From Rhodococcoides fascians A25f (GTDB lineage: Bacteria; Actinomycetota; Actinomycetes; Mycobacteriales; Mycobacteriaceae), in NCBI RefSeq assembly GCF_000760935.2, contig NZ_CP049744.1, positions 1,178,001 to 1,242,000 of the forward strand: a stretch of 64,000 nt of DNA. Direction: 5' to 3'. The notes beneath the pieces were generated by a model. That model saw only the letters and a program-made list of their open reading frames with translations, did not search any database and was not told the DNA's origin. Below are positions 19,447 through 25,379 of the stretch, piece after piece. How positions within the stretch are numbered: position 1 is the stretch's first letter; every line of letters begins with the position of its first letter. Made by a program: the position numbers and the translations under genes.

Positions 19447-20319
19447 CTAGGTCGGGATGCTGCAGACTCTGAAGCCGATATGACCAGTGGACGTGTCCTC
19501 GGACGTTCCTGAGCGCGCCGACGTGCGATAGCGTCGACAGTAACTGGCGTGACACAGGTGCGATCCGCCACGGATCACCCCACGCCGGTCGCGGCGGGAG
19601 GCGTCGAATGCGCCCGTCGTCCACTCCCAGACGTTGCCGGTGCATTCGTACAGGCCGTACCGGTTGGGGTCGAATGTCTTTGTAGCGCAGGTGTACACGG
19701 TGTCGGTCGACGAGCCGGGAAAGTGGCCGCGCCAGGTGTTCATGCGAGAGAGATCCGGTTCGCTGCCCCACGGAAACGGTTGCTGCTCCAGCCCGCCCCT
19801 GGCTGCGAACTCCCACTGAGCCTCGGACGGTAGCCCTGTCCCGGACCACGCGCAGAATGCTGCGGCGTCGCGTCGGGACACGTGAGTCACCGGGTGATCC
19901 GGCAGGTCGCGGACGGCGTCGACCAACGATTTCGGCCCGGCCGGTGCCCGCCAGTTCGCCCCGGGAACAACGCGCCACCAGGGGGTCTCTGGAACGACGG
20001 GGGACCGGTCCGCGGAGGGGAGGGTGCCGGCGAACACGAGGGAATCTCCGAAGGTCTCGGCGTCGGTGACGAACCCGGTGGCATCGACGAATGCCGCGAA
20101 CTCGCGCACCGTCACCGTGGTGATACCGATGGAGAAGCTGTCGACGGCAACTCGGCGCACCGGTCCCTCGAGGTCTTCGGGGTAGCTGAGTGGATCGTCG
20201 CTACCCATCAGAAACACAGTTCCGTTCAGGTCCGCCATCGCGGGCGCCACACCGGAGCTCGACATGCTGGTCGGGGCACCGACGCTCCCGTTGCGGCCGG
20301 GTGTACAGCATGCGGACAT
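19447..20319 (-). CDS. Formylglycine-generating enzyme (sulfatase-activating, SUMF1 family)
   Basis: A 290-residue oxidase that converts the sulfatase active-site Cys to formylglycine. The C-terminal catalytic segment GGSHLCHASYCRRYRTSAR holds the copper-binding Cys256 and Cys261 in the same spacing as characterised FGEs, so this is a true FGE rather than a general SUMF1-fold protein. NVWEWTTGAFD and the final GHIGFRV are also typical. I start at ATG 20319 (GAGGAC upstream), which gives the MSACCTPGRN N-terminus often seen in actinobacterial FGEs. It is divergent from the sulfatase it should activate, 47 bases apart. Confidence 0.92.
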   Translation of the reverse strand: MSACCTPGRNGSVGAPTSMSSSGVAPAMADLNGTVFLMGSDDPLSYPEDLEGPVRRVAVDSFSIGITTVTVREFAAFVDATGFVTDAETFGDSLVFAGTLPSADRSPVVPETPWWRVVPGANWRAPAGPKSLVDAVRDLPDHPVTHVSRRDAAAFCAWSGTGLPSEAQWEFAARGGLEQQPFPWGSEPDLSRMNTWRGHFPGSSTDTVYTCATKTFDPNRYGLYECTGNVWEWTTGAFDASRRDRRGVIRGGSHLCHASYCRRYRTSARSGTSEDTSTGHIGFRVCSIPT

Positions 20320-20366
20320 GTCCTCATGATCGCATCCTGAGCCGAACGATGTGCTAGGCAATAACA

Positions 20367-22582: not shown

Positions 22583-23508
22583 GTGCGAGTCTCGCGAATT
22601 CCGATCCCACCACCGTAGACGAGCTCAGGATTCTCGAGGCGGAGTCGGTCCACATCATTCGTGAGGTGGTGGCCGAACTCGAGCGGCCTGTACTGCTCTT
22701 CTCGGCGGGCAAGGACTCGATCGTTCTGCTTCGGTTGGCAGAGAAAGCGTTTCGGCCGTCGCCGCTGCCCTTCCCGGTTCTGCACGTCGACACGGGACAC
22801 AATTTCCCCGAGGTCATCGAATTTCGAGATCGACGCGTGCAAAGTTCGGGGCACAAGCTGATCGTCGCGTCGGTGCAGGACTCCATCGACCGTGGCCGCT
22901 CCACCGAGGTCGGCGGGCCCAATGCATCACGCAACCGCCTTCAGACGCGAACTCTGTTGGACGCGTTGGAGGAAGGCCGCTACGACGCTGCGTTCGGTGG
23001 GGCGCGGCGCGACGAGGAGCGGGCCAGGGCAAAGGAGCGAGTGCTCAGTTTCCGCGATGAGTTCGGCCAGTGGGACCCGAGGGCGCAGCGCCCCGAACCG
23101 TGGTCGCTGTACAACGGGCGCATCCGCCGCGGCGAGCAGGTACGCGTCTTCCCGCTGAGCAACTGGACCGAGCTCGATATCTGGCGCTACATCGAACTCG
23201 AAGGCCTGGAGCTTCCGTCCATCTACTTCGCGCACGAGCGAGAAGTGTTCGAGCGGGACGGGATTCTGCTCAGCACATCGGAGTTCACCTCGCCCACCGA
23301 GCACGAGCGTGCGTCGACGGAATGGGTGCGCTACCGCACAGTCGGCGACCTGACGATCACGGGAGCTGTGCGCTCGCACGCAACCGACATTGCCGGCGTC
23401 ATCGGAGAGATCTCCGCGGCGACGGTATCCGAACGGGGAGAAACTCGCGCCGACGACCGAACGTCGGTGGCCGCGATGGAAGACCGCAAGCGTGAGGGGT
23501 ACTTCTGA
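22579..23508 (+). CDS. cysD: Sulfate adenylyltransferase subunit 2
   Basis: A 309-residue PP-loop ATP sulfurylase subunit that makes APS from sulfate and ATP with CysN. The PP-loop is LFSAGKDSIVLLRLA (near residues 38-52). VLHVDTGHNFPEVIEFRD, FGGARRDEERARAKERV and NWTELDIWRYI are typical. It overlaps both neighbours (4 bases with the sulfotransferase, 1 base with cysNC), a tight three-gene operon. In many actinobacteria cysDN sits with assimilation genes; here it is tied to a sulfotransferase, so PAPS for sulfation is the obvious purpose. Confidence 0.95.
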   Translation: MSASLANSDPTTVDELRILEAESVHIIREVVAELERPVLLFSAGKDSIVLLRLAEKAFRPSPLPFPVLHVDTGHNFPEVIEFRDRRVQSSGHKLIVASVQDSIDRGRSTEVGGPNASRNRLQTRTLLDALEEGRYDAAFGGARRDEERARAKERVLSFRDEFGQWDPRAQRPEPWSLYNGRIRRGEQVRVFPLSNWTELDIWRYIELEGLELPSIYFAHEREVFERDGILLSTSEFTSPTEHERASTEWVRYRTVGDLTITGAVRSHATDIAGVIGEISAATVSERGETRADDRTSVAAMEDRKREGYF

Positions 23509-25379
23509 TGACACGGCAACTTCTGCGACTGGCTACGGCAGGCTCGGTCGACGACGGCAAGAGCACGCTGATCGGTCGGCTGATGTTCGATACCGACAGC
23601 CTGCCGCTCGACCACCTGGACGCGGTCACGAAGGACGGCGTTGCGGACCTGGCGGCACTGTCGGACGGGTTGCGCGCCGAGCAGGAGCAGGGCATCACGA
23701 TCGATGTGGCGTACCGATTCTTCTCCACCGAATCGCGGAGCTACATCCTGGCCGATACCCCCGGTCACGAGCGGTACACCCGAAACATGTTCACCGGTGC
23801 GTCGACGGCCGACGTCGCAGTGCTGCTGGTCGACGCCAGCGCCGGGGTACTGCGGCAAACACGCAGGCATGCCAGGATTTCGACGCTGCTCGGCGTCGAA
23901 CACCTGGTGGCCGCCGTGAACAAGATCGACCTCGTCGGCTATCGCGAGGATCGGTTCCGAGAGGTGGAGGCCGAGCTTCGTTTGCTCGCCGAGAGGTTGG
24001 GCGGCGTCGAACTGACGGTGATCCCGTTGGCCGCGAAGGACGGCGACAACGTAGTGCACCGCTCTGCGAATACCCCCTGGTACCACGGCCCGACTCTGCT
24101 CGAGCATCTCGAGAGCATCGAATTGGCCGCTCCTGCAGCGGAACCCGCTGAGTTACGTCTGCCGATTCAATGGGTGTCTCGACCGACCGCGGGGGAGCGA
24201 CGTAGGTACACCGGCAGGCTGTCGGCCGGAACACTGTCCGTCGGCGACGAGGTGGTCGCGCTGCCGTCGGGGTCTCGTTCGACTGTGACCGGACTCGACA
24301 CTCTCGACGACGATCGCACGACCGCTGTTGCACCACTGTCGATCTCGGTCCAGCTCGCAGACGATATCGACATCGGCCGCGGAGACGTCCTGGTCAGTGG
24401 TGTGGACGGTGCACACGAGCCGGTGCTCGCGCGGGAGATCGACGCAACGGTGTGCTGGTTCGGCGCGACTCCGCTGCGTGCCGGGGACCGCGTGTCGCTC
24501 AAACACACCGCCAGGACAGTCCGGGCGACGGTGCAGGCCTTGCACTCCAGGCTCGATCCGGAGACTCTGGACGAGAAGGACTCGCCGGTCGAGTTGTCGC
24601 TCAACGACATCGGTATCGTGACTCTCAGAACATCGTCGGTGATCGTGGCCGATCCGTACCTGGGCAACCGAGATGCCGGTGCGTTCATTCTGATCGACGA
24701 ATCCTCGAACGACACAGTCGGTGCAGGCACCATCGCAGAGGCGAGGGAAGTCAAGCCCGGCGAGCAGACCCGAAACGACATCAAGTGGCACCCCTCGGCG
24801 CTCGATCGTGCACACCGCTGGGGCGCAACGGGGCAGAGCGGAGCAACCGTCTGGTTCACCGGGCTGCCGGCCTCGGGTAAATCGACAGTGGCGGTGGCGC
24901 TCGAACGCGCGTTGGTCGAATCGGGCCGTACCGCATACCTTCTCGATGGCGACAACGTGCGCCACGGACTGTCCGACGATCTCGGCTTCAGTCCAGGCGA
25001 CCGAGCCGAGAACATCCGTCGCGTCGGGCACCTGACGCGACTTCTCGCCGATGCCGGGGTGGTGGCCATTGCCTCGCTCGTGTCGCCGTTGGAATCGGAC
25101 CGCGCTATCGCTCGTGCACTGAACGACGCTGCGAAGCTACCGTTCGTAGAGGTCGCCGTCAGCACTCCGTTGGAAGAATGCGAGCGCCGCGATCCCAAAG
25201 GCCTGTACGCCCGCGCTCGGGCCGGCGAACTCAAGGGGCTGACGGGCATCGACGCCCCGTACGAAGCGCCGTCGAACCCGGACCTGACGATCGACACCAC
25301 AGGAGCCGACATCGACGATCTGGTGCAGAAGGTCTTGGCGGTTCTGGAGGAACACGAGCGACGCGGGGGCACCAGGTGA
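23508..25379 (+). CDS. cysNC: Fused sulfate adenylyltransferase subunit 1 / adenylylsulfate kinase
   Basis: A 623-residue bifunctional protein. The N-terminal GTPase part (about 1-430) has the P-loop GSVDDGKST (12-20), DTPGHERY and NKIDLV, and drives APS formation with CysD. The C-terminal part (about 440-620) is APS kinase, with P-loop GLPASGKST near residue 450, LDGDNVRHGL and the FVEVAVSTPLEECERRDPKGLY segment; it makes PAPS. The fusion is the mycobacterial CysNC type. The start overlaps the cysD stop by one base. Confidence 0.95.
   Translation: MTRQLLRLATAGSVDDGKSTLIGRLMFDTDSLPLDHLDAVTKDGVADLAALSDGLRAEQEQGITIDVAYRFFSTESRSYILADTPGHERYTRNMFTGASTADVAVLLVDASAGVLRQTRRHARISTLLGVEHLVAAVNKIDLVGYREDRFREVEAELRLLAERLGGVELTVIPLAAKDGDNVVHRSANTPWYHGPTLLEHLESIELAAPAAEPAELRLPIQWVSRPTAGERRRYTGRLSAGTLSVGDEVVALPSGSRSTVTGLDTLDDDRTTAVAPLSISVQLADDIDIGRGDVLVSGVDGAHEPVLAREIDATVCWFGATPLRAGDRVSLKHTARTVRATVQALHSRLDPETLDEKDSPVELSLNDIGIVTLRTSSVIVADPYLGNRDAGAFILIDESSNDTVGAGTIAEAREVKPGEQTRNDIKWHPSALDRAHRWGATGQSGATVWFTGLPASGKSTVAVALERALVESGRTAYLLDGDNVRHGLSDDLGFSPGDRAENIRRVGHLTRLLADAGVVAIASLVSPLESDRAIARALNDAAKLPFVEVAVSTPLEECERRDPKGLYARARAGELKGLTGIDAPYEAPSNPDLTIDTTGADIDDLVQKVLAVLEEHERRGGTR

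What the first reader, a model, noticed from the sequence alone, without database searches (positions are those of the whole stretch)
19447..25379. Self-contained sulfate-ester cassette: FGE, sulfatase, Stf0-type sulfotransferase, CysD and CysNC
The five genes cover sulfate activation (CysD, CysN-CysC), transfer (Stf0-like with its PAPS loop SQRSGSTLL), removal (sulfatase with CSPSRG) and sulfatase activation (FGE with both copper Cys). The sulfotransferase and PAPS genes overlap by 4 and 1 bases. The FGE and sulfatase genes face each other across 47 bases. The cell could thus make and unmake a specific sulfated molecule. In mycobacteria Stf0 makes sulfated trehalose, but I know of no described sulfolipid that explains this Rhodococcus-type arrangement. 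The sulfatase has no export signal, so turnover would be internal.
Basis: partly seen in the sequence, partly recalled or inferred. Interest (0 to 1): 0.75.

Follow-up and report, generated by a model that had tools for sequence, protein, structure and literature searches.

The report
Trehalose sulfation and desulfation gene cassette
Five neighbouring genes in this actinobacterium appear to let the cell attach sulfate to the sugar trehalose and take it off again, which suggests a natural substrate for a mycobacterial sulfatase whose role has been unknown.

Summary
The five genes are real, and the finding's coordinates bound a true unit. A four-gene operon (sulfatase, stf0, cysD, cysNC) is divergent from an FGE gene. 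Twelve close relatives have the same two flanking genes side by side without this block. The sulfatase is the only PF00884 sulfatase found in the genome, and the FGE the only FGE found. A separate cysD/cysN locus lies beside a sulfite-reductase-family gene. Stf0 scores above NCBIfam's trehalose 2-sulfotransferase cut-off. In 401 family genomes the sulfatase occurs in 142, Stf0 in 138 and both in 137; they lie within 12 kb in 112 of those 137 (13 genera), so the arrangement is not Rhodococcus-specific. By sequence and predicted fold the sulfatase is nearest to S1_8 enzymes, whose reported activities remove 2-sulfates from sugars. Best reading: a reversible trehalose-2-sulfate cycle with its own PAPS supply and sulfatase activator. 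This predicts the unknown substrate of the AtsG (Rv0296c) sulfatase clade. Sulfolipid acyltransferases are not shared by the cassette genomes, so free trehalose-2-sulfate (sulfur store or solute) is favoured over a sulfolipid. The sulfatase's substrate and the physiological role are inferred, not shown. Four of the five functions were already noted together, and induced, in R. qingshengii IGTS8.

The parts
19447..20319 (-). Formylglycine-generating enzyme (FGE), 290 aa from the ATG at 20319; an in-frame TTG extends the ORF to 20367
   Evidence: PF03781 191.7 bits for the longer frame; PDB FGE 6s07 E=1.9e-67; active-site pair CHASYC at residues 256-261; only FGE-like match in own genome at E<=1e-20
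20350..20363 (+). Conserved TGTGCTAGGCAATA just before the sulfatase ATG, a possible -10 region of a leaderless promoter
   Evidence: Present in 7 of 8 genus loci aligned (G012 not aligned); the only exact copy in the own genome, with 4 further copies at 2 mismatches, fewer than the reversed-pattern control; the consensus promoter scan found none. The promoter role is inference
20367..21728 (+). Type-I (formylglycine) sulfatase, 453 aa, CSPSRG; proposed trehalose-2-sulfate 2-O-sulfohydrolase
   Evidence: PF00884 135.1 bits and PF16347 SGSH_C 61.8 bits; nearest PDB chains S1_8A 9bb9 and SGSH 4mhx by sequence and SGSH by fold; only PF00884 match in own genome at E<=1e-5
21791..22582 (+). Stf0, trehalose 2-sulfotransferase, 263 aa
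   Evidence: NF047724 432.2 bits, cut-off 400; PF09037 283.9 bits; PDB 1TEX E=3e-108
22579..23508 (+). CysD, sulfate adenylyltransferase small subunit, 309 aa; overlaps stf0 by 4 bases
   Evidence: TIGR02039 429 bits, cut-off 396.6
23508..25379 (+). CysNC, sulfate adenylyltransferase large subunit fused to APS kinase, 623 aa; overlaps cysD by 1 base
   Evidence: NF004035 771 bits, cut-off 715; PF01583 APS_kinase 208 bits
18629..19396 (-). Left boundary gene, type I methionyl aminopeptidase (not part of the cassette)
   Evidence: TIGR00500 217.3 bits; next to the 25447 GNAT gene in 12 relatives without the cassette
25447..26148 (+). Right boundary gene, GNAT acetyltransferase (not part of the cassette)
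   Evidence: PF08445/PF00583; right edge of the 12 empty sites

Best explanation
The cassette is a reversible trehalose-2-sulfate (T2S) module. CysD and CysNC turn sulfate and ATP into PAPS separately from the cell's cysteine pathway. Stf0 transfers the sulfate from PAPS to position 2 of trehalose. FGE converts Cys51 of the sulfatase into formylglycine, and the cytosolic sulfatase hydrolyses the 2-sulfate again, returning trehalose and sulfate. Trehalose would thus be a carrier for a retrievable internal sulfate reserve and/or an anionic compatible solute. Shown here: the genes and their families, the operon structure, the single sulfatase and single FGE in the genome, block presence and absence, and near-perfect co-occurrence with Stf0. 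Inferred: that trehalose is the acceptor in this species (from family assignment), that T2S is the sulfatase's substrate, and what the cycle is for.
Against: No substrate was tested. Five genomes keep the sulfatase without any PF09037 match, and 19 of 80 named loci have the sulfatase with no Stf0 in the stretch held, 14 of them with a full 10 kb downstream (the rest of those genomes was not searched by name), so the sulfatase may have another use. It shares only about 25% identity with S1_8 enzymes, and the alignment puts M102 at the place of the first lysine of SGSH's GKKH and H12 at the place of its first metal Asp, so the pocket is not the same. Sulfation genes and sulfatase rising together under sulfate limitation would be a futile cycle unless regulated. 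No FGE listed lies within 12 kb of the sulfatase in the 41 g29 genomes. Some of the 18 split cases may be assembly breaks (in G347 and G228 a gene runs to a contig end). The co-occurrence figures ignore shared ancestry. One cassette Stf0 (G012) scores 394.1, just under the cut-off of 400.
Confidence: 0.62

Rival explanations
1. Stf0 makes the head group of an acylated sulfolipid, as in M. tuberculosis sulfolipid-1, and the sulfatase edits or degrades it.
For: Stf0 starts SL-1 synthesis in M. tuberculosis (PMC9989471, passages). The own genome does have one full-length PapA-type acyltransferase.
Against: Of the 9 cassette genomes of the genus, full-length PapA_C matches are in 2 (G000, G004); G036 and G035 have partial matches just over the cut-off (32.8 and 30.2 bits against 30), 4 have only weaker ones and G025 has none. 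The G000 PapA lies on another contig beside a P450, a cytokinin dehydrogenase and a LOG-like gene, and the G004 one sits in the same gene order (Pfam run on G000 only). Among ORF families found in at least 3 of the 9 genus loci none was seen that looks like a polyketide synthase or PapA (judged by eye, stretches of about 20-27 kb). Sulfatides with a T2S core are described as exclusive to the M. tuberculosis complex (PMC13141999, passage).
Confidence: 0.15
2. The sulfatase with its FGE is a sulfur-scavenging enzyme for imported sulfate esters and is only coincidentally beside the Stf0-PAPS operon.
For: Induction without inorganic sulfate in IGTS8, where the authors list the sulfatase under sulfur acquisition (PMC8557817). 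In genus g10 FGE and sulfatase are linked in 5 of 9 genomes and none of these 9 has all three linked. Five genomes keep the sulfatase without Stf0. Sulfur-type genes recur near the genus cassettes: a rhodanese in 4 of the 8 other loci, luciferase-like monooxygenases in 6 of 9 with the window's, and a TauE/SafE permease in 3 of 9.
Against: Both genes are present in 137 of 142 sulfatase genomes. It is the only PF00884 sulfatase found in the genome, and its N-terminus has no room for an export signal. No sulfate-ester importer was recognised as a constant neighbour: the window's sugar ABC transporter is near the cassette in only 1 of the 8 other genus loci.
Confidence: 0.12
3. The PAPS-Stf0 operon is a sink that drains sulfite-derived sulfate and APS/PAPS (detoxification or energy recovery), as proposed for desulfurising R. 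qingshengii IGTS8; the sulfatase then recycles the carrier.
For: Proposed by the authors of PMC8557817 from the DBT proteome (passages). Luciferase-like monooxygenase genes lie just beyond the cassette and GNAT gene in 5 of the 9 genus loci (L050-L054) and upstream of it in the window. A TauE/SafE-family permease (Pfam name 'sulfite exporter') lies next to stf0 in G012 and a few kb from the cassette in G004 and G025.
Against: The proposal does not explain the conserved sulfatase and FGE. The cluster occurs in many mycobacteria, where I know of no such desulfurisation (not searched).
Confidence: 0.07

Closest known systems
Stf0 (PDB 1TEX) / NCBIfam NF047724 trehalose 2-sulfotransferase
   Same: Full-length match over residues 1-258, over the equivalog cut-off
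   Different: Here it overlaps the start of its own PAPS-synthase genes and is flanked by a sulfatase and FGE
Sulfatase, CysN2C, CysD2 and Stf0 cluster of R. qingshengii IGTS8 (peg167-170, PMC8557817)
   Same: Same four functions in consecutive genes; three raised without inorganic sulfate, the fourth detected but not quantified
   Different: That paper assigns the sulfatase to sulfur acquisition; in the passages read it does not pair it with Stf0 and mentions no FGE. In another genome (L175, genus g23) the sulfatase converges on the other three
AtsG (Rv0296c) of M. tuberculosis
   Same: A member of the window sulfatase's clade sits beside trans-aconitate methyltransferase and ESX genes in L104, the recalled Rv0296c neighbourhood. 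AtsG has arylsulfatase activity with no native substrate identified (PMC3141025, passage)
   Different: Orthology was judged by neighbourhood and recalled locus tags only; the AtsG sequence was not compared
S1_8 sulfatases (SGSH 4mhx; S1_8A/B/C of PMC12549532)
   Same: Nearest by sequence and predicted fold; C51, R55, H153, D222 conserved in the clade; the ETHR motif is shared with S1_8A
   Different: About 25% identity; no signal peptide; different residues at two usual active-site positions; substrate untested
2-Sulfotrehalose osmolyte of haloalkaliphilic archaea (PMC1224877)
   Same: Same predicted metabolite as a free solute
   Different: Archaeal; enzymes were unexplored in that 2005 review (passages)

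Membership tests
Stf0 trehalose 2-sulfotransferase (NF047724) | Score above the curated equivalog cut-off | tested here: met
   432.2 bits against 400; also 451.4 and 444.6 in L170 and L175, but 394.1 (just under) in L056
Stf0 trehalose 2-sulfotransferase (NF047724) | Sulfates trehalose at position 2 with PAPS | not testable with these tools
   Needs an enzyme assay
Type-I formylglycine sulfatase (PF00884) | CxPxR motif and sulfatase domain | tested here: met
   CSPSRG at residue 51, C51 in 81 of 81 aligned proteins; PF00884 135.1 bits against cut-off 25
Sulfatase subfamily S1_8 (SGSH and 2-O-sulfatases) | Closer to S1_8 members than to other subfamilies | tested here: inconclusive
   S1_8A, SGSH and S1_8B are the best PDB sequence matches and SGSH the best fold match, but identity is about 25%, an S1_25 module scores next in fold, and no SulfAtlas assignment could be run
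Sulfatase subfamily S1_8 (SGSH and 2-O-sulfatases) | Hydrolysis of a 2-O- or 2-N-sulfate on a sugar | not testable with these tools
   Needs an assay on trehalose 2-sulfate
Aerobic FGE | FGE domain with the active-site Cys pair | tested here: met
   PF03781 191.7 bits; CHASYC aligned with CHESYC of PDB 6s07
Sulfolipid-1 type pathway | PapA-type acyltransferase shared by the genomes that have the cassette | tested here: not met
   Full-length PapA_C match in only 2 of 9 cassette genomes; marginal partial matches in 2 more. Other SL-1 genes were not searched
Sulfate-activating complex (CysD + CysNC) | ATP sulfurylase subunits and fused APS kinase | tested here: met
   TIGR02039, NF004035 and PF01583 above their cut-offs

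The most novel reading that the evidence does not exclude
The AtsG clade of Mycobacteriales sulfatases are trehalose-2-sulfate 2-O-sulfohydrolases. Free T2S, reversibly made and unmade, is a widespread internal sulfate reserve or compatible solute in this order, and its use as the head group of sulfolipid-1 in the tuberculosis lineage is a later addition.
Probability: 0.45. Interest if true: 0.75.

Novelty: new variant of a known kind. Interest (0 to 1): 0.58.

Why it matters
Papers seen here (passages) say that the native substrate of AtsG (PMC3141025) and the substrates of the M. tuberculosis sulfatases in general (PMC3675115) are not known. The gene pairing, together with the position-2 specificity of the nearest sulfatase subfamily, gives one concrete, easily tested substrate. 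It would also give a reason why so many species outside the tuberculosis complex keep Stf0, and why many of them pair it with its own PAPS synthase and, in some genera, an FGE. If true, trehalose in these bacteria is also a sulfate carrier.

Tried and rejected
Considered and set aside. (1) The sugar ABC transporter at 12343-15409 as part of the unit: near the cassette only in the sister genome G023 among the 8 other genus loci. (2) A transcription-factor gene as part of the unit: the winged-helix gene at 17472-17972 is near the cassette in several genus loci but also present without it. (3) The TGTGCTAGGCAATA motif as a regulon signature: one exact copy in the genome, fewer near matches than the reversed-pattern control, and by eye not upstream of the mycobacterial sulfatases in the 62 rows printed. 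(4) Sulfolipid genes: see rival 1. (5) Fold search: the list is crowded with related sulfatases, so the fold alone does not fix the subfamily; the model has mean pLDDT 71.5 with low confidence around the catalytic loop. (6) Literature: ten searches of the held open-access library gave no paper, in the listings and the passages I opened, that pairs this sulfatase with trehalose 2-sulfate. The 2002 and 2004 Mougous papers were seen only as citations, so this is not proof of absence.
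Full report
WHAT IS THERE. The window lies in a 5.9 Mb genome (G000, contig C1:1178001-1242000). Its genus is Rhodococcoides: several same-genus genomes have contigs of identical length to named records, for example G004 and R. fascians A44A, contig 3,065,789 bases. The five genes are confirmed by Pfam and NCBIfam: FGE 19447-20319 (-), sulfatase 20367-21728 (+), stf0 21791-22582 (+), cysD 22579-23508 (+), cysNC 23508-25379 (+). 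stf0, cysD and cysNC overlap by 4 and 1 bases.

In the genus (37 genomes) Stf0 is in 9, this sulfatase in the same 9, and a cassette-type FGE (63% identity or more) in the same 9; 4 of the other 28 have a more distant FGE. The cassette-type CysNC (76% or more) is in the same 9. All five genes are co-located in the 8 other genomes as in the window. In eight of the nine, the window's included, the order is FGE divergent from sulfatase, then stf0, cysD and cysNC; one of these, G036, has an ABC ATPase gene inserted between sulfatase and stf0. In G012 the order is different (stf0, cysD, cysNC, FGE, sulfatase, all on one strand), yet all five stay together. I then fetched stretches from 20 of the 28 genomes without the cassette. 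In 12 of them the methionyl aminopeptidase gene and the GNAT gene that flank the window's cassette lie about 105 bases apart with no gene between. In 7 the GNAT gene is present with no cassette, and in 1 (L218) it lies elsewhere. No mobile element or obvious junction repeat was seen by eye (no repeat search was run). On a tree of four flanking genes for 26 of the 37 genomes (7 with the cassette beside this GNAT gene, 19 without; 11 genus members left out), cassette presence changes at least 6 times. This small tree may be disturbed by recombination and some genes are missing in some rows. Stf0, sulfatase, cassette-type FGE and cassette-type CysNC are absent together from the 19; cysD was looked for only in the stretches fetched.

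WHY THE PARTS BELONG TO ONE PROCESS. The own genome has one match to the sulfatase family PF00884, the cassette gene, and one FGE match at E<=1e-20, so here the FGE has only this sulfatase as an evident client. A separate locus (L174, C1:2350000-2369000) holds a solute-binding protein and an ABC ATPase, cysN without an APS kinase, cysD, and a nitrite/sulfite reductase family gene. This looks like the cysteine-supply pathway, which leaves the cassette's CysD/CysNC free to make PAPS for Stf0. Across 401 genomes of the family the sulfatase is in 142 and Stf0 in 138. Both are in 137, sulfatase alone in 5, Stf0 alone in 1, neither in 258. Of the 137, 74 have the two genes within 3 kb, 38 within 3-12 kb, 7 far apart on one contig and 18 on different contigs; some of the 18 may be assembly breaks. 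The five sulfatase-only genomes have no PF09037 match. The single Stf0-only genome, G271, has Stf0 at bases 14021-14782 of a 14,926-base contig. FGE lies within 12 kb of the sulfatase in 49 of 142 genomes in 9 genera, and FGE, sulfatase and Stf0 are all linked in 42, in 8 genera (a further 34 listed FGE places checked added none; one search says that some weaker matches are not listed). These numbers ignore common ancestry.

NAMED RELATIVES. Of 80 named loci found with the sulfatase (biased to close relatives, mostly Mycobacterium and Mycolicibacterium), 48 have sulfatase, stf0, cysD and cysNC in that order on one strand (7 of them also FGE), 13 have sulfatase and stf0, and 19 have the sulfatase alone in the stretch held, 14 of these with a full 10 kb downstream. 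In five genomes where the pair is not linked and which I opened (L170-L173, L176), Stf0 still heads cysD and cysNC elsewhere in the genome. In L104 (M. intermedium) the sulfatase sits beside trans-aconitate methyltransferase, EccE, EccD, EspG and a WXG100 gene. From memory this is the surroundings of M. tuberculosis Rv0294-Rv0296c, where Stf0 is Rv0295c and AtsG is Rv0296c; the AtsG name and tag are in PMC4734655 (passages).

WHAT THE CYCLE MIGHT BE FOR. In R. qingshengii IGTS8 the sulfatase (peg167), CysD2 (peg169) and Stf0 (peg170) are raised or seen only when dibenzothiophene replaces sulfate, and CysN2C (peg168) was detected but not quantified (PMC8557817, passages). This ties the cluster to sulfur supply. 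Near the genus cassettes other sulfur-type genes recur in part: luciferase-like monooxygenases in 6 of 9, a rhodanese in 4 of the 8 others, a TauE/SafE permease in 3 of 9. Free 2-sulfotrehalose is a known osmolyte in haloalkaliphilic archaea (PMC1224877, passages). An acylated sulfolipid is less likely: a full-length PapA match is in only 2 of the 9 cassette genomes (2 more have marginal partial ones), and in G000 it sits beside cytokinin genes on another contig. My preferred reading is a retrievable sulfate store or charged solute; which of the two cannot be told from sequence.

NOVELTY. Single enzymes are known kinds, and parts of the cluster are in print. New here, as far as the ten searches listed under Tried and rejected show, are four things: inclusion of FGE in the unit, its gain and loss as a block, the near one-to-one bond between this sulfatase clade and Stf0, and the resulting prediction of the sulfatase's substrate. 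I rate it a new variant of a known kind, interest 0.58.

Noticed in passing
G000 contig C2:98000-117900 (L192), same order in G004 C8 (L193): P450, ferredoxin-transketolase, cytokinin dehydrogenase, LOG-like, luciferase-like and PapA genes in a row on a 176-kb contig: looks like the fas (leafy gall) locus of plant-pathogenic R. fascians plasmids; the name is recalled, the domains are and the order.
   Followed up: partly
window 8740-12202: Rhodanese, two luciferase-like monooxygenases and a 2-phosphosulfolactate phosphatase family gene; relatives of the two monooxygenases lie just 3' of the cassette and GNAT gene in five genus loci, perhaps other sulfur metabolism.
   Followed up: partly
L056 7501-8436 (G012), L051 and L052 (G004, G025): A TauE/SafE-family permease (PF01925) directly upstream of stf0 on the same strand in G012, and a few kb from the cassette in two other genomes; not found in the stretches of the other genus loci.
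   Followed up: partly
window 15998-17027 (-): Two overlapping frames (15998-16570 and 16314-17027) each look like part of a FolD-type protein, so the gene may be frameshifted here (FolD name recalled).
   Followed up: no
window 20350-20363: TGTGCTAGGCAATA directly before the sulfatase ATG is kept in 7 of 8 genus loci, suggesting a leaderless promoter.
   Followed up: partly
L050 11219-13036 (G036): An ABC ATPase gene (605 aa, two ABC_tran stretches) has inserted between sulfatase and stf0, the only interruption seen among the genus cassettes.
   Followed up: partly
L181, L183, L184 (G239, G379, G121): Three genomes with the sulfatase but no Stf0 share a neighbour resembling a phosphotriesterase-type hydrolase (resemblance read from the sequence, no family search run), which may point to a second use of the sulfatase.
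   Followed up: no
window 19427-19436 and L199-L210, upstream of the methionyl aminopeptidase gene: A conserved palindrome ATACCGGTAT before the methionyl aminopeptidase gene resembles an operator.
   Followed up: no
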